Source of the DNA: a virus
Strand: one strand, 5' to 3'
Virus record (IMG/VR): IMGVR_UViG_3300013130_000007
Span: 1 to 45,107 of that record
DNA length: 45,107 bases
The notes under the pieces were generated by a model. The model worked only from the letters and a program-made list of their open reading frames with translations, had not been told where the DNA came from and ran no database searches. The position numbers and the translations under genes are program-made. Below are positions 3,456 to 37,141 of the stretch, in pieces; position 1 is the stretch's first letter; each line of letters begins with the position of its first letter.

Positions 3456-3564
3456 CCCTCAGTGAATCTAAGTTCTTATTTTCACTTCAAGCCTGGTATC
3501 GTAGCTCAGGCGGTCGGACGACTGTCTGCCCTCAATGAATCTAAGTTCTTATCTTCACTTCAGG
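3456..3564 (-). CRISPR. CRISPR mini-array 1 (2 repeats, 1 spacer)
   Basis: Two 36-nt repeats (3456-3491 and 3529-3564) flank one 37-nt spacer (3492-3528). Read on the minus strand, they match the repeat of all other arrays in the window (start CCTGAAGTGAAG, centre TAAGAACTTA, end CACTGAGGG). The distal repeat is degenerate at its 5' end (CTTGAAG) and has one internal change. The leader element lies at 3565-3698, so transcription would run leftward. The spacer resembles the 5' half of a tRNA gene on the + strand. Confidence 0.93.
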
Positions 3565-3698
3565 GGCCATCAGGTTTGACCCTGAATATCCCTGACTTTT
3601 AGTGGCATTCTGCGATGGACTAAATCACTCGAAGTGTTTAACCCATCGCCGTCGGCCTGAAGGTGGCCATCTCTAAACGTATCTTAAGACACGTCTAG
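3565..3698 (-). ncRNA. Conserved structured leader/tracr-like element of array 1
   Basis: About 134 bases, minus strand, directly abutting the first repeat of array 1. The same sequence precedes arrays 2-5. Hairpins in transcription order are a long 5' stem (CTAGACGTGTC / GATACGTTTAG), GGCC-loop-GGCC, a stem GCGATGG / CCATCGC enclosing CACT-TCG-AGTG, and TCAGG / CCTGA next to the repeat. Homology with the array 2 element continues about 30 bases further upstream, so the two form imperfect inverted repeats around the genes at 3752 and 4047. A leader with promoter function and a tracrRNA-like guide scaffold are the two main readings. Confidence 0.8.
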
Positions 3699-3751
3699 GT
3701 GATGGCCTATTGTAACTACAATTTAATCCTAGTCAATCAAGGAGTCAAAAA

Positions 3752-4045
3752 ATGAATCACACACCGGAACCGTGGACGATTGCATACGAGGACGATGATG
3801 GCAACGAGTATGACAATGGAGTGCGGATTGATTCGCCCGAGGAGCCGGTCGCATTTAACGTCATTGACTGCTCTGCCCACCTCATTGCCGCAGCACCGGA
3901 ACTGTTAGCTGCACTAATAGGTCTTGTCAATATCGTTAGCGACGACCCTAACGACTACCCTGACATGGCCGCTTATCGCCAAGCAAAAAAATGCGAACAG
4001 GCTGGGGCTGCCGCTATCGCTAAAGCAGAGGGGAGGAGAGAGTGA
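3752..4045 (+). CDS. TPGPW-family small protein A
   Basis: A 97-aa acidic protein, MNHTPEPWTIAYEDDDGNEY at its N-terminus, with LIAAAPELLAALIGL near residue 45. It is paralogous to the next gene and to the C-terminal part of the protein at 545. A GGAG ribosome binding site lies upstream. The gene sits with its paralogue between two divergently oriented CRISPR leader-arrays, so the pair could be passengers of a mobile CRISPR cassette or work with it; the sequence does not decide. No biochemical function is known to me for this family. Confidence 0.75.
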   Translation: MNHTPEPWTIAYEDDDGNEYDNGVRIDSPEEPVAFNVIDCSAHLIAAAPELLAALIGLVNIVSDDPNDYPDMAAYRQAKKCEQAGAAAIAKAEGRRE

Positions 4046-4046
4046 A

Positions 4047-4361
4047 ATGAGTCATACACCGGGACCGTGGGCAATTTATGACGACGGCCCAAATGGATCT
4101 GACGTAATACTTGCTAATGTCGAGGGAGAAAATTGGGATGTTGCTTACATCTCAAACGACAGCTGCGAATCTAGGCCGGAGAATGAGCGCAAGGCTAATT
4201 CCCGCCTCATTGCGGCAGCACCGGAACTGCTAGAGCGGCTCAACGCTATGGTCAGTGGCATGGAGTGCGAGTGCGACAAGGCGGACGTAGAACATCCAAT
4301 GTGTGACATCTGTTGGTCACGATTGGTCATTGCTAAAGCAAAACCGCTTGACCTTGACTAG
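4047..4361 (+). CDS. TPGPW-family small protein B
   Basis: A 104-aa protein, MSHTPGPWAIYDDGPNGSDV at its N-terminus, with LIAAAPELLERL near residue 55 and a cysteine-rich C-terminus (ECECDKADVEHPMCDICW) that could bind a metal. The ATG at 4047 follows GGGAGGAGAGAG and lies one base after the stop of its paralogue, so the two are coupled. The homology region leading into CRISPR array 2 begins directly after its TAG stop. Confidence 0.75.
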   Translation: MSHTPGPWAIYDDGPNGSDVILANVEGENWDVAYISNDSCESRPENERKANSRLIAAAPELLERLNAMVSGMECECDKADVEHPMCDICWSRLVIAKAKPLDLD

Positions 4362-4391
4362 GATGAAGTTGTAGTCACAATATGCTATCAC

Positions 4392-4525
4392 CTAGACGTG
4401 TCTTAAGATACGTTTAGAGATGGCTACCTTCAAGCCGACAGCGAGGGGCTAAACACTTCGAGTGATTTAATGCCTCGCAGAATGCCATTAAAAGTCAGGG
4501 ATATTCAGGGTCAAACCTGATGGCC
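4392..4525 (+). ncRNA. Conserved structured leader/tracr-like element of array 2
   Basis: The same element as at 3565-3698, in + orientation. In the second hairpin GGCC/GGCC is replaced by GGCT/AGCC, and in the third GCGATGG/CCATCGC by GCGAGG/CCTCGC. Both are paired substitutions that keep the stems, which supports a functional RNA structure. The first hairpin is of the CTAGACGTGTC type shared with arrays 1 and 5. Confidence 0.8.
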
Positions 4526-4705
4526 CCTGAAGTGAAGATAAGAACTTAGATTCATTGAGGGGCTAAAGCCAATTGGTCGTTCACAGCCTGCTTACACCCT
4601 GAAGTGAAGATAAGAACTTAGATTCATTGAGGGTAACTGGTTCATGCGTGTTGTGCTGCGGAACGATCCCCTGAAGTGAAGATAAGAACTTAGATTCACT
4701 GAGGG
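4526..4705 (+). CRISPR. CRISPR mini-array 2 (3 repeats, 2 spacers)
   Basis: Repeats lie at 4526-4561, 4598-4633 and 4670-4705, with two 36-nt spacers between them. The first two repeats carry the TTCATTGAGGG variant and the last the TTCACTGAGGG form. About 35 bases of unique sequence follow the last repeat before AT-rich DNA and a terminator, so a final unit without a closing repeat is possible. Confidence 0.95.
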
Positions 4706-4772
4706 ACGGCAAACCACCGATCGAAGTCAAAAACAGCTAATCTGCGTTTAGTTGTTGACAAGTTTTACACGA

Positions 4773-4805
4773 GCCGGGCAGGCGTTCTGCCCGGCTTTTT
4801 TTTTT
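4773..4805 (+). terminator. Intrinsic terminator after CRISPR array 2
   Basis: A perfect 9-bp stem GCCGGGCAG / CTGCCCGGC with a five-base loop is followed by ten T residues. It closes the array 2 transcript. Confidence 0.93.
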
Positions 4806-24949: not shown

Positions 24950-25633
24950 ATGTTTGTAGTGATTGAGGGTATTGATGGTTCCGGCAAAGGTACCGTAACT
25001 ACGAAGTTACTTGCTACATTAGCGAGTGCAGAGGTGAAAGCAGAGAAACTAAGCTTCCCAAGGTACGAGAACACAAGTTACGGAAAACTTGTTGGACGTT
25101 ATTTGAACGGTGACTTTGGTACTGAAGCCCATCCTTATCTGCATGGTACTTTGTTTGCCATGGATCGGTTTGAAAGTCGGGATTACTTGAAAAACCGATT
25201 GAGCAACTGTGACTTTGTGTTATGTGACCGATACATTCCGTCAAACCTGTGTTATTCCGCAATGAAAGTGGAGGAAGGAGAACGTGATGCGCTGGTAAGA
25301 CATTTTGCGAAGTTCGAGTATGGGTTTCTCCAGATGCCCGTACCTGACGTGATTTTTTTCCTTGACGTTCCGGTAAAGTTTGCAGTCCAAAACATTGCCA
25401 AGAAGGCGACACGCAGCTATACTGATAAGGCCTCGGATATTTTCGAGGCAGATGAGCAGTATCTGAGCCGTGTGCGGTCCTTTTACATGTCGGAACTGAT
25501 AAATTATCATCCGTCTTCGACATGTTTTCAGACCGTCGAATGTGTATCCAATGACAGTCTCAAACCGATTGATGAAATCGTAGAGAATGTGCGTGGAATG
25601 TTGTTTCAAATGTACGAAAGAGGAATTGACTGA
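24950..25633 (+). CDS. tmk: Thymidylate kinase
   Basis: A 227-aa dTMP kinase: the P-loop EGIDGSGKGT at residues 6-15, the DR(Y/H/W) motif as CDRYIPSNLCYS near 92, and a lid-like segment with AKKATRSYTDKA near 145. It phosphorylates dTMP to dTDP, complementing the dCTP deaminase in dTTP supply. It starts directly after the polymerase stop and overlaps the next gene (TGATG). Confidence 0.93.
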   Translation: MFVVIEGIDGSGKGTVTTKLLATLASAEVKAEKLSFPRYENTSYGKLVGRYLNGDFGTEAHPYLHGTLFAMDRFESRDYLKNRLSNCDFVLCDRYIPSNLCYSAMKVEEGERDALVRHFAKFEYGFLQMPVPDVIFFLDVPVKFAVQNIAKKATRSYTDKASDIFEADEQYLSRVRSFYMSELINYHPSSTCFQTVECVSNDSLKPIDEIVENVRGMLFQMYERGID

Positions 25634-27417
25634 TGCGTAAGAAAAGAAGTTTGGTGCCACGTACTCGTGAGTCGGTAAATCGACAGTTGGACAGTACGAA
25701 GGATGACGGATTTGCGATGACTCCGAAAGGAGACTTCAGCATCAATCCAAAGCTCAAGAATGTTCGGTTTGATCGTCTCCGTTGCTACAAGAACGGAAAA
25801 ACCGTCATTCGTATCTGGAACATGCTTGATCCAGAGAACCCCAGTGACGCGTTGCTAAACGGTCGTTTGTCCGCAGTCGACATGGCTGGTCTTGGTGGGA
25901 TGTCCATTTCAGAGCCTGCGTACTGCGTGCAGTATGCTGGTATTAACAAGGACACTATCGGCAATTACCTGTCTAGACCAGAAGATGCTGAGCCGTGTTC
26001 TTACATCATCGCTCGTAGTAAGGCTAGCGTCTATGAGGGTGTCGGGTTCTGGGACGAACCGTATGTCAAGCTGTATGTAACGGCGAAGAAAGCTCGAGAC
26101 ACGGGCGAATTTGGTCACGGTCGTGCTTGGGATCCAAAGTGGAATGCTTTGATGACAAACAAAGAAAACCCAGCTTTGGGTCCGTTCAAGCAACGCCACT
26201 TTGTTGTGTGCTCTGTTTACGAAAATGGTCCATCACTGGACTTGACGCGAGAGCACATTGAGTATCGAAAGTCTGGTAAGGACGTCTCGAAGGATATCGC
26301 TCGTAATGGAATTCCGCTTGGCGAAGGGCCCGAAGATCCTTTGGTTATTCTTCAGCTCCCGATTAGTGCTGGCAAAAAGCTGTTACAGCTTTGCTGCGCT
26401 GAAAAGCAAGATTGGGAAGGCGACGAGAATGTCAATCCATCCGTTATGTTCAAATACGGAGATCCTTGCGGTCATTTCGATGCTAGTTCTGGGATAGTTA
26501 AAGGCGGCGTGTTTTTCACGCTGTACAACCCAGAAAAGGTAGAGATTGAAAAGAACTCAACGTTCCGCGGTATCCTTAATCCGCAAGTGGTTGAGTACGA
26601 AGCAGCGGTGTCGAAGGTGTATGAAGGACCAAACGGCAAATTGACAGCTGATTTGTCGAAAGAACAGGTCGACAATATCTTGTCGAAGCATTTGTTCTTT
26701 TGGAAAGAAAGCAGCGCGGATCCTGAGGATTCGTATTTGTTGCACGAGCCGACAATTGAGGAGCGATGCCTTCTCATTGCAAAGGCGTACAAACAAGTTC
26801 CAAAGCTGCTTGAATTTTGCTGGATGTCGAATCCGGAATACTTGAATTTCGATTCCGTTCAAACTGTTCTCAAGAATCGAAAAGCCGTGTTAGTTCAAAA
26901 GCCTGACATGGACGACGAAGAGGAAGATGAGGACGACGTCGAAGAGGAAGTAGTGCAAACTACTACACCTGCGACAAAGACCAAGACTACGAAGAAAGCA
27001 GACAAACCAAAGAGTGCTGCTGACTTGGTCGACGAATTTGAAGACGATGAGGAAGACGTCAACGCTGCTCAGTCTGATGAAGAGGAATCTTTTGATGACG
27101 AGCCTGTTGTTGCAACGAAATCAAAACCAAATCCAACGAAGAAAAAGCCTCCTTTTGAAGTCGAAGACGATTTCGACGATGAAGACGAGGAAGAGCTTGA
27201 CGAAGACGAGCTTGATGACGATGAGCTCGAGGATGAGGATTTTGATGACGAAGACGATGAGGAAGACGATGCTGAAGAAGAAAAGTCTGACGACTTTGAC
27301 GACGAGGTAGATAATTCCGCAGTGCAAGAGCAATTGAACAATCACCTGTCAAAGGCGAAAGGTCTTGCTCGAAGCAGCAAACGAACTTCAACACCTCCAA
27401 AGGGTAAGAAGTCCTAG
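25633..27417 (+). CDS. Putative ssDNA-binding protein with very long acidic tail
   Basis: A 594-aa protein. Residues about 1-425 form a globular domain that I do not recognise. From about 428 to 575 the chain is low-complexity Asp/Glu with a few Lys/Pro islands, ending in a basic tip (GLARSSKRTSTPPKGKKS). A globular nucleic-acid-binding domain plus an acidic tail is the design of phage SSBs such as T4 gp32 and T7 gp2.5. The position between polymerase/tmk and the RecA-like gene fits, and no other SSB is apparent. The tail is far longer than usual. The stop codon TAG lies inside the array 3 leader. Confidence 0.6.
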   Translation: MRKKRSLVPRTRESVNRQLDSTKDDGFAMTPKGDFSINPKLKNVRFDRLRCYKNGKTVIRIWNMLDPENPSDALLNGRLSAVDMAGLGGMSISEPAYCVQYAGINKDTIGNYLSRPEDAEPCSYIIARSKASVYEGVGFWDEPYVKLYVTAKKARDTGEFGHGRAWDPKWNALMTNKENPALGPFKQRHFVVCSVYENGPSLDLTREHIEYRKSGKDVSKDIARNGIPLGEGPEDPLVILQLPISAGKKLLQLCCAEKQDWEGDENVNPSVMFKYGDPCGHFDASSGIVKGGVFFTLYNPEKVEIEKNSTFRGILNPQVVEYEAAVSKVYEGPNGKLTADLSKEQVDNILSKHLFFWKESSADPEDSYLLHEPTIEERCLLIAKAYKQVPKLLEFCWMSNPEYLNFDSVQTVLKNRKAVLVQKPDMDDEEEDEDDVEEEVVQTTTPATKTKTTKKADKPKSAADLVDEFEDDEEDVNAAQSDEEESFDDEPVVATKSKPNPTKKKPPFEVEDDFDDEDEEELDEDELDDDELEDEDFDDEDDEEDDAEEEKSDDFDDEVDNSAVQEQLNNHLSKAKGLARSSKRTSTPPKGKKS

Positions 27418-27543
27418 TTGTGGCAACATGACTAGAGATGGCCACCTTCAGGCCGACGGCGATGGGTTAAACACTTCGAGTGATTTAGTCCATCGTAGAA
27501 TGCCACTAAAAGTCAGGGATATTCAGGATCAAACCTGATGGCC
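27414..27543 (+). ncRNA. Conserved structured leader/tracr-like element of array 3
   Basis: About 130 bases from the TAG stop of the SSB-like gene to the first repeat. The 5' hairpin is the second type (CTAGTTG-TGG-CAAC followed by GACTAG), shared with array 4 only. The GGCC/GGCC hairpin, the GCGATGG ... CCATCGT stem around CACT-TCG-AGTG, and the TCAGG/CCTGA hairpin are kept. Confidence 0.8.
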
Positions 27544-27784
27544 CCTGAAGTGAAGATAAGAACTTAGATTCACTGAGGGTCGTGGAGGTTGCTTTAGGTT
27601 GTGGCGATGAAAAACCTGAAGTGAAGATAAGAACTTAGATTCACTGAGGGGCAATTGGGTTAGGCTACCCGGTCTTCATCACACTTACCTGAAGTGAAGA
27701 TAAGAACTTAGATTCACTGAGGGATCTCCAGTGGTGACGTTGAAATTGCTTGAAGTGAAGATAAGAACTTAGATTTACTGAGGG
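27544..27784 (+). CRISPR. CRISPR mini-array 3 (4 repeats, 3 spacers)
   Basis: Repeats lie at 27544-27579, 27615-27650, 27688-27723 and 27749-27784. The spacers are 35, 37 and only 25 nt. The last repeat is degenerate at both ends (CTTGAAG start, TTTACTGAGGG end), as expected at the distal end of an array. It separates the SSB-like and RecA-like genes. Confidence 0.95.
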
Positions 27785-32643: not shown

Positions 32644-33451
32644 ATTGGTTGCAGGCACTTTCCAGGCATTTGTTGATCGTTTGCATGCAAATCTGCCTGG
32701 ATTGGTTTTGCGACACACAGTTCACGAAAGCGTCAAGCATCTTCTTAAGAAGGAGTTAACGCAAGACTTGTTGGTAGATACGGCTTGGAGGTTGGCAGGT
32801 AATCTTGAAAAGCTACTAGAACAGCAACCAGTACCGAAATGGAACGGGCAAAAAGAGTTTGAATGGATTCCAGCTCAAGTTTGTGAAATACAGACTGTTC
32901 GTCGATTTGGTAACTTGGTCAATTTTTTGTCTTTTCAAAGTTTAGCTGGCAGCGTTGTTCCATTACGGTTGACTCAATTCTGGTCCTTCAAAAAAACCAA
33001 TTACCTATCAGTTTACAAAAACTCGTCAGGTTATGGTTTTGGGTTTAGTCGTTCTAGGATTAATAGTCGTGGAGAACAGCAGAATACAGGACTGTATCGT
33101 AATCCGATGCAGTTTTACGGGCTACGATGCTTTCTGTTGCTAGACCCCGTACGCTCGCAACCTGATCCATTTGTGATAGAGGTAGGTCACACAAGCGCAA
33201 CAACTGAGTACAATAAACGATTGATTGAAGGAAGAGACAGGGCTAGAACACCTTGCATAAAAAAGTTTCCGAATACTTTAGAATGTTACATGTGTCCTAT
33301 TGGAGTTGATCGCTGTGTTCTTGCAACGCACGAAGCAACATACGAAAGAAAGCTCTGTCCAAAATGCGCTTGTGTTAGCTTTTTTGATCCAACTGAAATA
33401 GAGTATCCAGAACTCTGTTTGACTTGTTCTCGTGAAGAAAGAAAACGATGA
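32537..33451 (+). CDS. Cys-rich hypothetical protein with zinc-finger C-terminus
   Basis: A 304-aa basic protein. The GTG start at 32537 has a very strong ribosome binding site (GGAGGAGATAA) and forces a 107-base overlap with the previous gene. The C-terminal 60 residues hold three cysteine clusters (CYMCPIGVDRC, CPKCACV, CLTC), enough for one or two zinc sites. The middle contains an aromatic, Ser/Gly-rich region (YKNSSGYGFGFSRSR). A nucleic-acid-binding or nuclease-like protein is possible; nothing specific is recognised. Confidence 0.65.
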   Translation: MTTNSSHPPLPHLSVSQILKRRDKLTAKSSDFLGHKLVAGTFQAFVDRLHANLPGLVLRHTVHESVKHLLKKELTQDLLVDTAWRLAGNLEKLLEQQPVPKWNGQKEFEWIPAQVCEIQTVRRFGNLVNFLSFQSLAGSVVPLRLTQFWSFKKTNYLSVYKNSSGYGFGFSRSRINSRGEQQNTGLYRNPMQFYGLRCFLLLDPVRSQPDPFVIEVGHTSATTEYNKRLIEGRDRARTPCIKKFPNTLECYMCPIGVDRCVLATHEATYERKLCPKCACVSFFDPTEIEYPELCLTCSREERKR

Positions 33452-33957
33452 CACTACAGGCTAGAATGACTGCGGATGATCGCCGATTGTATAATCCGGC
33501 TCGCGATGTTGCGCATAACTTTCAAGAAGTTATGAACCTAGTTGCGGGTCGTTTAGAGGACTACGCTTGGCCGGAGCTCAACGAAGTTCTGGCTCGCGAA
33601 GGAATCACAATTGATGATTTAGGGGAAGCTTGCGGTGCTTATTGTCGGTATTTAGCTAGCGCAGCGCAGGAGCCTAACGTGTCTATGGCCGAAGGCTTAG
33701 CTCGTTCAGGTTTTACGCAATGCGAACCTGCTGCGCAGGTAGCTGTGATGGCAATGCTGGGTACCTGTTATTCAGGTATTCAGCATGCTGGCATTCGAGA
33801 AGCTAGCGTTGGCGGCGAAGGTCCGATGTACACCGTGGCTGACTTGATCGTGCATGCAGAGAGATTTCAAGCACACATAGGTCAATCACGTTGGCGTCGC
33901 CGATGGGAAAGATTGAAAGGAAAAATCAAAGCTGGAATTAAAGCTTTGAGGTCCTAG
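33448..33957 (+). CDS. Hypothetical protein upstream of CRISPR array 4
   Basis: A 169-aa helical protein with an ATGA overlap to the preceding gene and a strongly basic C-terminus (RWRRRWERLKGKIKAGIKAL). Its stop codon TAG is the first base triplet shared with the array 4 leader (TCCTAG), the same arrangement as at the end of the SSB-like gene before array 3. Unknown function. Confidence 0.65.
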   Translation: MTLQARMTADDRRLYNPARDVAHNFQEVMNLVAGRLEDYAWPELNEVLAREGITIDDLGEACGAYCRYLASAAQEPNVSMAEGLARSGFTQCEPAAQVAVMAMLGTCYSGIQHAGIREASVGGEGPMYTVADLIVHAERFQAHIGQSRWRRRWERLKGKIKAGIKALRS

Positions 33958-34083
33958 TTGTGGCAACATAACTAGAGATGGCCACCTTCAGGCCGACGGC
34001 GAGGGGCTAAACACTTCGAGTGATTTAGTGACTCGCAGAATGCCAATAAAAGTCAGGGATATTCAGAATCAAACCTGATGGCC
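33954..34083 (+). ncRNA. Conserved structured leader/tracr-like element of array 4
   Basis: About 130 bases, with the same 5' hairpin type as array 3, here fully paired (CTAGTT / AACTAG around GTGGCAACAT). The third stem reads GCGAG / CTCGC with CTAAA / TTTAG inside it, a paired change from the GCGATGG, TTAAA/TTTAG form. The last hairpin is shorter (TCAG / CTGA). Confidence 0.8.
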
Positions 34084-34192
34084 CCTGAAGTGAAGATAAG
34101 AACTTAGATTCACTGAGGGCGGGAAACCGATACGAACTTGATGAAATGGGAAACAGCCTGAAGTGAAGATAAGAACTTAGATTTACTGAGGG
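34084..34192 (+). CRISPR. CRISPR mini-array 4 (2 repeats, 1 spacer)
   Basis: Repeats at 34084-34119 and 34157-34192 flank a 37-nt spacer. The second repeat has the distal TTTACTGAGGG form. Only 45 bases separate it from the start of the Cas12-like gene, with no terminator seen between them, so the array and effector could share a transcript. Confidence 0.94.
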
Positions 34193-34237: not shown

Positions 34238-35611
34238 ATGGTTAAAAAAATCAAGGACGTATACGTCCGAACAATTTGTGTTCCGGTTGCTGAGTGTATC
34301 TCGCATACCAAAACAGAACTTTACGCAGCTATACGAAAGTCACTTGATGCTTCGCGTAGAGTTTCAAACTTGGCGGCAAGCGAATGTGCGCGGCAAGACG
34401 ATATCCGCGATGAAAAGTGCAAAAAGTTGTATACATATCCTGCATGCCACGATCCGTTATTGGATGCGGTACCAGGTAAGGGCGCGATTGTTTCGGCATT
34501 ATGTCGTGCCGTAGAGAAAAACTACTTGCAAGATCGGTGGAAAGTTCAGCGAGGCGATCGAAGTCTTCGTAACTATCGTACCATGCCGTGGCCGCTGCTA
34601 CAGAGTCAAGGCCATTTTAAGCTAATTGACGATGGAGAATTTTTAGTTGCAAGAATTCGACTGTTTGACGGAACCTATGACGTTCGTTTGGCAGGCGGAA
34701 GTAACTACCGAGATCAAATAGCAGGTTTGCGTAAGTCAATTTCAATTGACGGTATAGGCGACAGTAAGTTGTGGATTGAAAAGGCAGGAGATAAAAAGCA
34801 CAAAGCGATGCTTGGCATTAGTGTTAAGTTGCCTAAGAAAGTTGAAAAAGAACGAACCGGTGCTGTTGAAGTAGTGAGCGGCATTGAATTTCTTGTTGCG
34901 ATGACTATTCCACGAAGGCAAAGTCCTTTTGTTTTTACTGGTGAAGACGTTCGGATTTGGAAAGAAACAAGCGTCCGACGTAATCAACAGTGGAGACAGG
35001 CAAGAAAACAAGGCGCTGACAGAAAACGGTTGCGAGAACAATCGAGAGCATTTGCGGAAAAAATGCAACGCAGACTCAAAACTAAAGTTCACGAGCTGGC
35101 GTCGCAGATTGTTAAAAAGGCTGATAGATGCAAAGTCGCAACAATCGAAATCGACTTTACCATCAAGAGTTATTTGAAACAATTTCCATGGAGTGATCTT
35201 AAGGAAAAAATCAAGCACAAAGCGGAGCTATGCGGTATTGCGATTTTTGACAAAACGCAGACAATAGCAGAGCCAGACTTAGACAAGCCTCATATTTACT
35301 TTTTGTACGATCCAAACGCAGAGCGCGTAAAGATTGGCAGGACGAAAGGTAAAGCAGGTCGGTTGGAGTCATACTACACATTCGTGCCTGATTGTGTAGT
35401 GTTGGCGATCGACAATCAGCCAATCAACAAATTGGTAAGCAGAGAAAACCATTGGCACGCTTTGTTTGACAACCATCGCGTGACAGGTCGAAAAGAAGCT
35501 GGCAATGAGGTATTTGAGGCTGGTTACGTAATTAAGTGGTTGCGAGATAGGGGCTGGTTAGGAAATGCCGGAAACCTCTCGCAGATCGCTCAAGTCCTAG
35601 ACGTGTCTTAA
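34238..35611 (+). CDS. Cas12-like effector with C-terminal GIY-YIG nuclease domain
   Basis: A 457-aa protein flanked by CRISPR arrays 4 and 5. Residues about 1-200 look like a compact Cas12/TnpB recognition part (basic, helical, YAAIRKSLDASRRVSNLAA near 29). VVSGIEFLVAM (212-222) corresponds to RuvC-I 'GIDLG', with Glu217 in the Asp position. GEDVRIWKETSVRRNQQWRQ starts a basic bridge-helix-like region; VATIEIDF (300-307) then PWSDLKEKIKHKAELCGI (317-334) match RuvC-II with its following helix. The zinc finger and RuvC-III that should follow are absent. Instead residues 351-440 form a GIY-YIG domain: HIYFLY, VKIGRT, Arg375, Glu403. I infer an RNA-guided DNA-binding protein with a replaced nuclease. 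The start follows GAAAGGGAAAATT. The gene ends inside the array 5 leader. Confidence 0.75.
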   Translation: MVKKIKDVYVRTICVPVAECISHTKTELYAAIRKSLDASRRVSNLAASECARQDDIRDEKCKKLYTYPACHDPLLDAVPGKGAIVSALCRAVEKNYLQDRWKVQRGDRSLRNYRTMPWPLLQSQGHFKLIDDGEFLVARIRLFDGTYDVRLAGGSNYRDQIAGLRKSISIDGIGDSKLWIEKAGDKKHKAMLGISVKLPKKVEKERTGAVEVVSGIEFLVAMTIPRRQSPFVFTGEDVRIWKETSVRRNQQWRQARKQGADRKRLREQSRAFAEKMQRRLKTKVHELASQIVKKADRCKVATIEIDFTIKSYLKQFPWSDLKEKIKHKAELCGIAIFDKTQTIAEPDLDKPHIYFLYDPNAERVKIGRTKGKAGRLESYYTFVPDCVVLAIDNQPINKLVSRENHWHALFDNHRVTGRKEAGNEVFEAGYVIKWLRDRGWLGNAGNLSQIAQVLDVS

Positions 35612-35730
35612 GATACGTTTAGAGATGGCCACCTTTAGGCCGACAGCGATGGGTTAAACACTTTGAGTGATTTAACCCCTCGCAGAATGCCATTAAAAGT
35701 CAGGGATATTCAGGGTCAAACCTGATGGCC
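35597..35730 (+). ncRNA. Conserved structured leader/tracr-like element of array 5
   Basis: 134 bases that overlap the last codons of the Cas12-like gene, whose TAA stop lies in the loop of the first hairpin (CTAGACGTGTC / GATACGTTTAG, 35597-35622). The GGCC hairpin has a loop change only. The third stem has a T/C mismatch but gains an 8-bp stem GGGTTAAA / TTTAACCC around CACT-TTG-AGTG. Confidence 0.8.
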
Positions 35731-36199
35731 CCTGAAGTGAAGATAAGAACTTAGATTCACTGAGGGAGGATGTGATCGATCGCAGCTTGGCCTTTCAGCC
35801 ATCCTGAAGTGAAGATAAGAACTTAGATTCACTGAGGGCTCGGAGGAAAACTCATGTTCGATGACAATGGAACACCCTGAAGTGAAGATAAGAACTTAGA
35901 TTCACTGAGGGCCCATACTCGAGATCCATCTCTTTCTCGACGATAGCCTGAAGTGAAGATAAGAACTTAGATTCATTGAGGGCAATGACGCGATCGGCCG
36001 ATCGCTGAGACGAGCACATTTGAAGTGAAGATAAGAACTTAGATTCACTGAGGGCTGTGAGCCTCGACGTAATCCTGCATCGTGATCGGAACCTGAAGTG
36101 AAGATAAGAACTTAGATTCATTGAGGGCAATGACGCAATCGGCCGACCGCCGAGACGAACACACCTGAAGTGAAGATAAGAACTTAGATTCACTGAGGG
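35731..36199 (+). CRISPR. CRISPR array 5 (7 repeats, 6 spacers), main array
   Basis: Repeats start at 35731, 35803, 35876, 35947, 36019, 36092 and 36164, each 36 nt, with spacers of 36, 37, 35, 36, 37 and 36 nt. Repeats 4 and 6 have the TTCATTGAGGG variant, and the spacers that follow them are near-identical (four transitions in 36 positions). Repeat 5 is degenerate at its 5' end (TTTGAAG). The repeat can fold (AGTGAA ... TTCACT, with CCT/AGG outside). No terminator separates the array from the exonuclease gene 30 bases downstream. Confidence 0.96.
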
Positions 36200-36229: not shown

Positions 36230-37141
36230 ATGATTATCAATGCGTGGGATAATCAATTTACTGCAAAGTATGGTCATCACTTTCCACCGTCTTACTTATG
36301 CTTCGACACGGAATTTACCGGTCGAAGCGAGCGGGATGACTTGATTGTAGAAATTGGTCACGTTCTGGTAGAGGATGGAAAAATAGTCGACCGGTTCAAC
36401 CTTGTGTTGAACTGGTATGAAATGAACATTGTTCCTGCATCTTGGTTGGACTACAAACTCAATCAAATGCGGCACATTGTAGGGCCAGAATGGAGATTGC
36501 TTCCTGAAACTGTGAAGAAAGAAGGAATCAATCCTCTTCAAGCTTTGCGGTTTTACCATAAGTTGTTTCACACTTGGGCAAACCGAGGTTTGCCCTTTGT
36601 CGCGCAGAATGGCACAAATGCTGATGAACCTATGATTCGAGGAAACTTGAATAGGTTTTTGAACAAGACTTTTGAAATACCGGCAAACAGTTACTTTGAT
36701 ACAGGAGCAATTTTCAAGGCCAATCAAATTTGGCAGGCACAAACCGGTGATTTGACTAACTATCGTGCAATCATATTGCCCACTAGAACTGAAACGTTGA
36801 AAGCGTATTTTCATCGAGTGTGTGGTGCTAGGATACGAGGTGTTCACTGGTCACTTAAGTTGATCTTGGAACATTTCGATCTGATCAAAAAACACAACTT
36901 GGATACTTCTAATTTGCACAATGCAGGTTTTGACGCCTTGTGTTTGCATTTAATAATGGAAGAATACCGCTCAATGGTAACACCGCGAGAAATTCCGGCA
37001 CCTGAAGTGCCTCGCGTGTTCAAAGCCGATCAAGTAAAACCTAACCTTATACCTGTGCAAAAGCAAAACACTTCTACAGTTACCGGGCAGAGTGCTTCGC
37101 AACAGACGCCGAAGCCTTTGAAACGTCAGCGTCTGATGTGA
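36230..37141 (+). CDS. DnaQ-like DEDDh 3'-5' exonuclease
   Basis: A 303-aa protein. Motif Exo I is LCFDTEFTG (Asp26, Glu28), a middle Asp lies in FVAQNGTNADEPMI near residue 130, and the C-terminal motif is HNAGFDALCLHLI (His near 230, Asp near 235), giving the DEDDh set. The last 50 residues are a Pro/Gln-rich tail. The polymerase already carries its own exonuclease, so this one may trim DNA or RNA ends elsewhere. DnaQ-family exonucleases trim prespacers in several CRISPR systems, and this gene follows the main array directly, but no Cas1/Cas2 is seen. RNase T-like or general phage nuclease roles are equally possible. Confidence 0.85.
   Translation: MIINAWDNQFTAKYGHHFPPSYLCFDTEFTGRSERDDLIVEIGHVLVEDGKIVDRFNLVLNWYEMNIVPASWLDYKLNQMRHIVGPEWRLLPETVKKEGINPLQALRFYHKLFHTWANRGLPFVAQNGTNADEPMIRGNLNRFLNKTFEIPANSYFDTGAIFKANQIWQAQTGDLTNYRAIILPTRTETLKAYFHRVCGARIRGVHWSLKLILEHFDLIKKHNLDTSNLHNAGFDALCLHLIMEEYRSMVTPREIPAPEVPRVFKADQVKPNLIPVQKQNTSTVTGQSASQQTPKPLKRQRLM

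What the first reader, a model, noticed from the sequence alone, without database searches (positions are those of the whole stretch)
35983..36163. Near-identical spacers 4 and 6 of array 5 with linked repeat variant
Spacers 35983-36018 and 36128-36163 agree at 32 of 36 positions and differ only by transitions (positions 10, 20, 24, 32). Both follow a repeat with the rarer TTCATTGAGGG end. The repeat-spacer unit seems to have been duplicated and the spacer then changed, while the repeats stayed the same. This could be selection for two alleles of one target, or independent capture from two related genomes.
Basis: seen in the sequence. Interest (0 to 1): 0.75.

Follow-up and report, generated by a model that had tools for sequence, protein, structure and literature searches.

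The report
Phage Cas12f-like system with swapped nuclease
A virus of bacteria carries five small CRISPR arrays, one holding two near-copies of the same guide (most likely a copy that drifted), beside a shrunken Cas12f-like protein whose usual DNA-cutting part is gone and replaced by a different kind of nuclease, which would be a new sort of RNA-guided cutter if it works.

Summary
Observation confirmed. Spacers 35983-36018 and 36128-36163 agree at 32/36; the four differences are transitions; both follow the TTCATTGAGGG repeat. Two further transitions lie in the first two bases of the next repeat. The likeliest origin is duplication of a repeat-spacer unit, then drift. No reading frame makes more than two of the four changes synonymous, and no target was found, so 'two alleles of one target' is unsupported.

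The setting is more interesting than the pair. The window is a phage contig with five arrays (18 repeats, 13 spacers), each preceded by a conserved, strongly folding ~135-nt RNA element predicted to pair with both ends of the repeat, as Cas12f tracrRNA does. Between arrays 4 and 5 lies one effector gene (34238-35611). Residues 1-337 match Cas12f (E 9e-18); RuvC-I Asp is Val, and motif III and the zinc ribbon are absent. In their place sits a GIY-YIG (T5orf172) domain with its key residues. Six related phages lack the cassette. No other such fusion was found in the collections or papers searched. Reading: a phage-borne type V-F variant, nuclease swapped from RuvC to GIY-YIG. Activity, targets and host are untested.

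The parts
35983..36018 (+). array 5 spacer 4, member 1 of the near-identical pair
36128..36163 (+). array 5 spacer 6, member 2 of the pair (32/36 identical, transitions only)
35731..36199 (+). array 5: 7 repeats of 36 nt (CCTGAAGTGAAGATAAGAACTTAGATTCACTGAGGG and variants), 6 spacers
35596..35730 (+). predicted tracrRNA-like element of array 5; its first hairpin overlaps the effector's last codons and stop (CTAGACGTGTCTTAA)
   Evidence: fold z -6.0
34238..35611 (+). effector gene, 457 aa: Cas12f-like residues 1-337 with RuvC inactivated, then a C-terminal GIY-YIG (T5orf172) domain, about residues 350-438 (ORF could start at GTG 34205)
34084..34192 (+). array 4: 2 repeats, 1 spacer
33953..34083 (+). 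predicted tracrRNA-like element of array 4; starts at the TAG stop of gene 33448-33957
27544..27784 (+). array 3: 4 repeats, 3 spacers (last one 27 nt)
27413..27543 (+). predicted tracrRNA-like element of array 3; starts at the TAG stop of gene 25633-27417
4526..4705 (+). array 2: 3 repeats, 2 spacers; terminator-like hairpin 4771-4797 downstream
4391..4525 (+). predicted tracrRNA-like element of array 2; promoter-like TTGACT-16-CACAAT at 4354-4381
3456..3564 (-). array 1: 2 repeats, 1 spacer
3565..3699 (-). predicted tracrRNA-like element of array 1; promoter-like TTGACT-16-TACAAT at 3736-3709

Best explanation
The spacer pair is a duplicated repeat-spacer unit that has since diverged, inside the largest of five arrays of a phage-borne, type V-F-like CRISPR system. 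Shown by sequence: the arrays; their conserved 5' structured elements; one effector gene with a Cas12f-like body lacking a functional RuvC centre and carrying a GIY-YIG domain instead; and absence of the cassette at the same site in related phages. Inferred: each element is a tracrRNA in cis, which with the first repeat and spacer forms a natural single guide and may serve later spacers in trans; the Cas12f body binds guide and target; the GIY-YIG domain does the cutting that RuvC no longer can; and the guides act against competing mobile DNA (other phages or plasmids) in the same host. Repeats stay uniform through selection on the hairpin and anti-repeat pairing, or through gene conversion, while duplicated spacers are free to drift.
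For: Pair: 32/36, same register, same upstream repeat variant, identical repeats; duplication is the usual cause in surveyed arrays. Effector: PADLOC Cas12f 9e-18 over profile positions 11-340 of 399 and Cas12u3 2.4e-15; nearest solved chain 8hr5. All Cas12f homologues found align to residue 336-337 and no further. RuvC-I Asp is Val213 against two canonical Cas12f proteins; motif II Glu is not kept; motif III and TNB are absent. GIY-YIG: T5orf172 E 1.1e-4, 23.1 bits, cutoff 20; Tyr354, KIG365-367, Arg375 and Glu403 match by alignment. RNA: five elements fold with z -3.1 to -6.0; 98% of cells paired and three compensated pairs; the consensus fold pairs CCUUC with repeat 3' GAGGG and UCAGGG with CCCUGA at the repeat's 5' end, matching the two repeat-antirepeat stems of the Cas12f guide (PMC10097598). 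Insertion: flanking genes 33448 and 36230 lie close together in relatives that lack effector, element and arrays. T5orf172 domains are modular and swap DNA-binding partners in phages (PMC10448857).
Against: No protospacer, PAM or host was found. The GIY-YIG match is modest, and both AlphaFold models are too poor to use (mean pLDDT 34 and 41), so the fold is not independently confirmed. The fusion is seen in one metagenomic contig only. No adaptation genes were identified among the window genes scanned, and not every gene was scanned. In the shuffle control the number of compensated pairs is not above chance (233/500), because five paralogues are few and similar.
Confidence: 0.62

Rival explanations
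1. The two spacers were captured independently, or the duplicate was kept by selection, to match two alleles of one target in related phages or plasmids.
For: Spacer divergence (6/38 with the TT/CC) contrasts with unchanged repeats.
Against: Same register and length plus shared repeat variant need a coincidence; no frame has more than two synonymous changes; no target found; independent insertions are under 1% of duplicate candidates elsewhere.
Confidence: 0.2
2. The effector is a nuclease-dead Cas12f acting as an RNA-guided binder or repressor (like TldR or Cas12m), and the GIY-YIG domain is a passive or DNA-binding tail.
For: Dead, truncated Cas12f without GIY-YIG exists in a Sphingobacterium genome, ending at the same place (L054); phage TldR repressors are known; one spacer spans a Shine-Dalgarno and start codon.
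Against: The GIY-YIG key residues, including the metal-binding Glu, appear kept; thirteen different guides fit targeting of invaders better than one fixed regulatory target.
Confidence: 0.25
3. The cassette is a mobile or homing element: an RNA-guided homing nuclease whose element-array units spread to gene ends.
For: T5orf172 is a homing-type domain; arrays 3 and 4 start exactly at stop codons and the cassette sits between genes that are neighbours in relatives.
Against: No spacer matches the empty sites or any other part of six relatives beyond chance-length matches of at most 20 nt.
Confidence: 0.1
4. The effector ORF is an assembly or recombination artefact joining a Cas12f fragment to a T5orf172 gene.
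For: Single contig, no close homologue.
Against: One open frame of 457 aa; the last codons overlap the array 5 element; the Cas12f part ends at the same boundary as an independent dead Cas12f.
Confidence: 0.07

Closest known systems
Type V-F Cas12f (incl. Cas12u3; solved chain 8hr5, Priestia L055, phage Cas12f L053)
   Same: Cas12f body by HMM; arrays with a cis element predicted to pair with both repeat ends; compact single effector; L053 is also phage-borne with a mini-array
   Different: RuvC-I Asp lost, motif III and zinc ribbon absent, GIY-YIG domain instead; five dispersed arrays each with its own element
Nuclease-dead Cas12f / TldR (Sphingobacterium L054; phage TldR, PMC13418256)
   Same: RuvC inactivated; L054 stops at the boundary where the window's Cas12f part ends
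   Different: L054 has no GIY-YIG domain, and none is described for TldR in the passages read; the window has many guides in arrays
Type V-M Cas12m
   Same: mobile-element-borne Cas12 with an altered RuvC centre that does not cut double-stranded DNA (PMC11656645, PMC10442227)
   Different: Cas12m keeps a RuvC domain and silences by binding; no second nuclease domain is described
T5orf172 / GIY-YIG phage nucleases (homing endonucleases; ICP1 Odn)
   Same: GIY-YIG nuclease joined to a target-recognition module in a phage
   Different: those mostly use zinc-finger (CapR-like) protein DNA-binding domains; here the recognition module is a Cas12f body with guide RNAs
Viral mini-CRISPR arrays (e.g. 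SPV1/SPV2, PMC11656645)
   Same: small arrays in a virus, likely inter-virus competition
   Different: this phage carries its own effector beside the arrays

Membership tests
Type V-F (Cas12f) | effector homologous to Cas12f | tested here: met
   PADLOC Cas12f 9e-18, profile 11-340 of 399
Type V-F (Cas12f) | intact RuvC D-E-D centre | tested here: not met
   Asp to Val213, Glu not kept, motif III absent
Type V-F (Cas12f) | TNB zinc ribbon | tested here: not met
   Cas12f1-like_TNB absent; present in L053 at 1.7e-25
Type V-F (Cas12f) | CRISPR array next to the effector | tested here: met
   arrays 4 and 5 flank it
Type V-F (Cas12f) | tracrRNA with two repeat-antirepeat stems | tested here: inconclusive
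   predicted by consensus fold and conserved in five copies; no expression data
Type V-F (Cas12f) | RNA-guided dsDNA cleavage | not testable with these tools
   needs biochemistry
GIY-YIG / T5orf172 | family match above curated cutoff | tested here: met
   23.1 bits, cutoff 20
GIY-YIG / T5orf172 | key residues Tyr, Arg, Glu present | tested here: met
   Tyr354, Arg375, Glu403 by alignment with L058 and L060; the Glu column is less certain
GIY-YIG / T5orf172 | GIY-YIG fold | tested here: inconclusive
   models too poor
Duplicated spacer unit | same register, shared repeat variant, high identity | tested here: met

The most novel reading that the evidence does not exclude
A phage-encoded RNA-guided nuclease in which a Cas12f body with a lost RuvC centre aims a GIY-YIG nuclease, guided by dispersed arrays that each carry their own tracrRNA in cis: a new cutting chemistry for type V CRISPR.
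Probability: 0.45. Interest if true: 0.88.

Novelty: new variant of a known kind. Interest (0 to 1): 0.72.

Why it matters
Type V CRISPR effectors are described as cutting with one RuvC domain. A natural swap of that domain for a GIY-YIG nuclease would show that guide binding and cutting are separable modules in evolution, and would give a small enzyme with a different cleavage chemistry. The element-plus-array units also show how a phage can carry several independent guide cassettes. The diverged spacer pair offers a look at how guides change after duplication without recapture.

Tried and rejected
Protospacers: searched in the window, six relatives, phages, plasmids and IMG/VR; only chance-level hits, e.g. 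spacer 6 to a Salipiger aldehyde dehydrogenase gene at E 0.2 and spacer 4 to Gordonia phage polymerase genes at E 0.4. Same repeat elsewhere: none in IMG/VR. Same effector fusion elsewhere: none in IMG/VR scans, phages, plasmids, one scan of bacterial genomes, or about 790 genomes of the two phyla that hold L054 and L055. These scans find close relatives best, so absence is weak evidence. Structure: two AlphaFold jobs, both too poor for a fold search. Host from the HIP1 motif: not enriched in the window. All changes from spacer 6 to 4 are A>G or C>T, hence wobble-compatible, but six events are too few to read anything into. Papers: none found combining GIY-YIG with Cas12f; the library is open-access only. 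That dead Cas12f proteins pair with sigma factors in Bacteroidota is from memory and was not found in the library.

Full report
Observation. The array 5 pair is as described: 32 of 36 identical, four transitions, both after the TTCATTGAGGG repeat. Over the whole 108-nt units the only other differences are two transitions in the first bases of the next repeat. The match cannot be chance. The repeat variant keeps the repeat hairpin by G-U pairing and also occurs in arrays 1 and 2.

What the pair is. Register, length and the linked repeat variant favour duplication of a unit, with later change. In surveyed bacterial arrays most duplicate candidates are duplications and few are independent insertions (PMC11472070). 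No reading frame gives more than two synonymous changes among four, so the pair does not look like two alleles of a constrained protein-coding target. Targets were not found in any collection searched, so selection for two alleles remains untested rather than excluded.

Surroundings. The window is a 45,107-base IMG/VR contig of a phage with a DNA polymerase, UvsX-like recombinase, thymidylate kinase and dCTP deaminase. Seven relatives were found by polymerase, six of them read in full. The window holds five arrays of one repeat, 18 repeats and 13 spacers. Every array follows a conserved element of about 135 nt. The five elements fold far better than shuffles. The structure keeps 98% of pairs, with compensated changes mostly in the first hairpin. 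That support is limited, because five paralogues are few: the count of compensated pairs alone is not above the shuffle control. The element is predicted to pair with both ends of the repeat, the same two repeat-antirepeat contacts described for Cas12f guides, one of which forms the conserved pseudoknot (PMC10097598). I therefore read it as a tracrRNA encoded in cis with each array. Arrays 3 and 4 begin at the stop codon of the gene before them and array 5's element overlaps the effector's end; arrays 1 and 2 have their own promoter-like sites.

Effector. The gene between arrays 4 and 5 matches Cas12f profiles end to end except for their last ~60 positions. Those positions hold the zinc ribbon and RuvC motif III, present in the canonical phage Cas12f L053 and Priestia L055. 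In the window protein RuvC-I Asp aligns to Val213 and motif II Glu is not kept. A Sphingobacterium protein, L054, is also RuvC-dead and stops at the same boundary, with no added domain. In the window a T5orf172 domain, a GIY-YIG subfamily, follows, with the usual Tyr, Arg and Glu by alignment. T5orf172 domains in phages are modular and exchange their DNA-binding partners (PMC10448857). All Cas12f homologues recovered end their alignment at residue 336-337, and one T5orf172 protein aligns to the C-terminal part only, so the fusion is so far seen only here.

Insertion. Genes 33448-33957 and 36230-37141 flank the cassette; in most relatives their orthologues lie within about 30 bases of each other, and in G006 they are separated by one small gene. 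The relatives show no effector, element or arrays at the sensitivity used. The cassette is therefore a gain in this lineage, or was lost in the others.

Mechanism, shown and inferred. Shown: arrays, conserved structured elements, effector architecture, insertion. Inferred: guide complex formation, target binding, cutting by the GIY-YIG domain, use against competing mobile DNA. Cas12f works as a dimer (PMC10097598); if this protein does too, two GIY-YIG domains could cut both strands, which is speculation.

Membership. It is laid out like a type V-F system with a predicted guide of that kind, but fails the RuvC and zinc-ribbon tests, so it is filed as a variant, not a plain Cas12f. Main weaknesses: one contig, modest GIY-YIG score, no usable structure model, no target, no host.

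Noticed in passing
3490-3528: The single spacer of array 1 is, in antisense, like the 5' half of a tRNA gene (AGCCTGGTATCGTAGCTCAGG...), but its D-arm would not close.
   Followed up: no
35839-35875: This spacer carries a Shine-Dalgarno-like GGAGG and an ATG in sense, so it would cover a gene start in its target.
   Followed up: no
3752-4361: Two tandem paralogues between arrays 1 and 2; the first matches phrog_1273.
   Followed up: partly
L053:4860-5340: A second phage contig with a canonical Cas12f, a 3-repeat mini-array and a long upstream non-coding stretch with a promoter-like site.
   Followed up: partly
L054:5692-6774: Sphingobacterium sp. SGG-5 encodes a RuvC-dead, truncated Cas12f with a FecR-like gene about 3 kb away.
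   Followed up: partly
27724-27750: Array 3's last spacer is short (27 nt against 37-39 for the others, counted to the repeat core).
   Followed up: no
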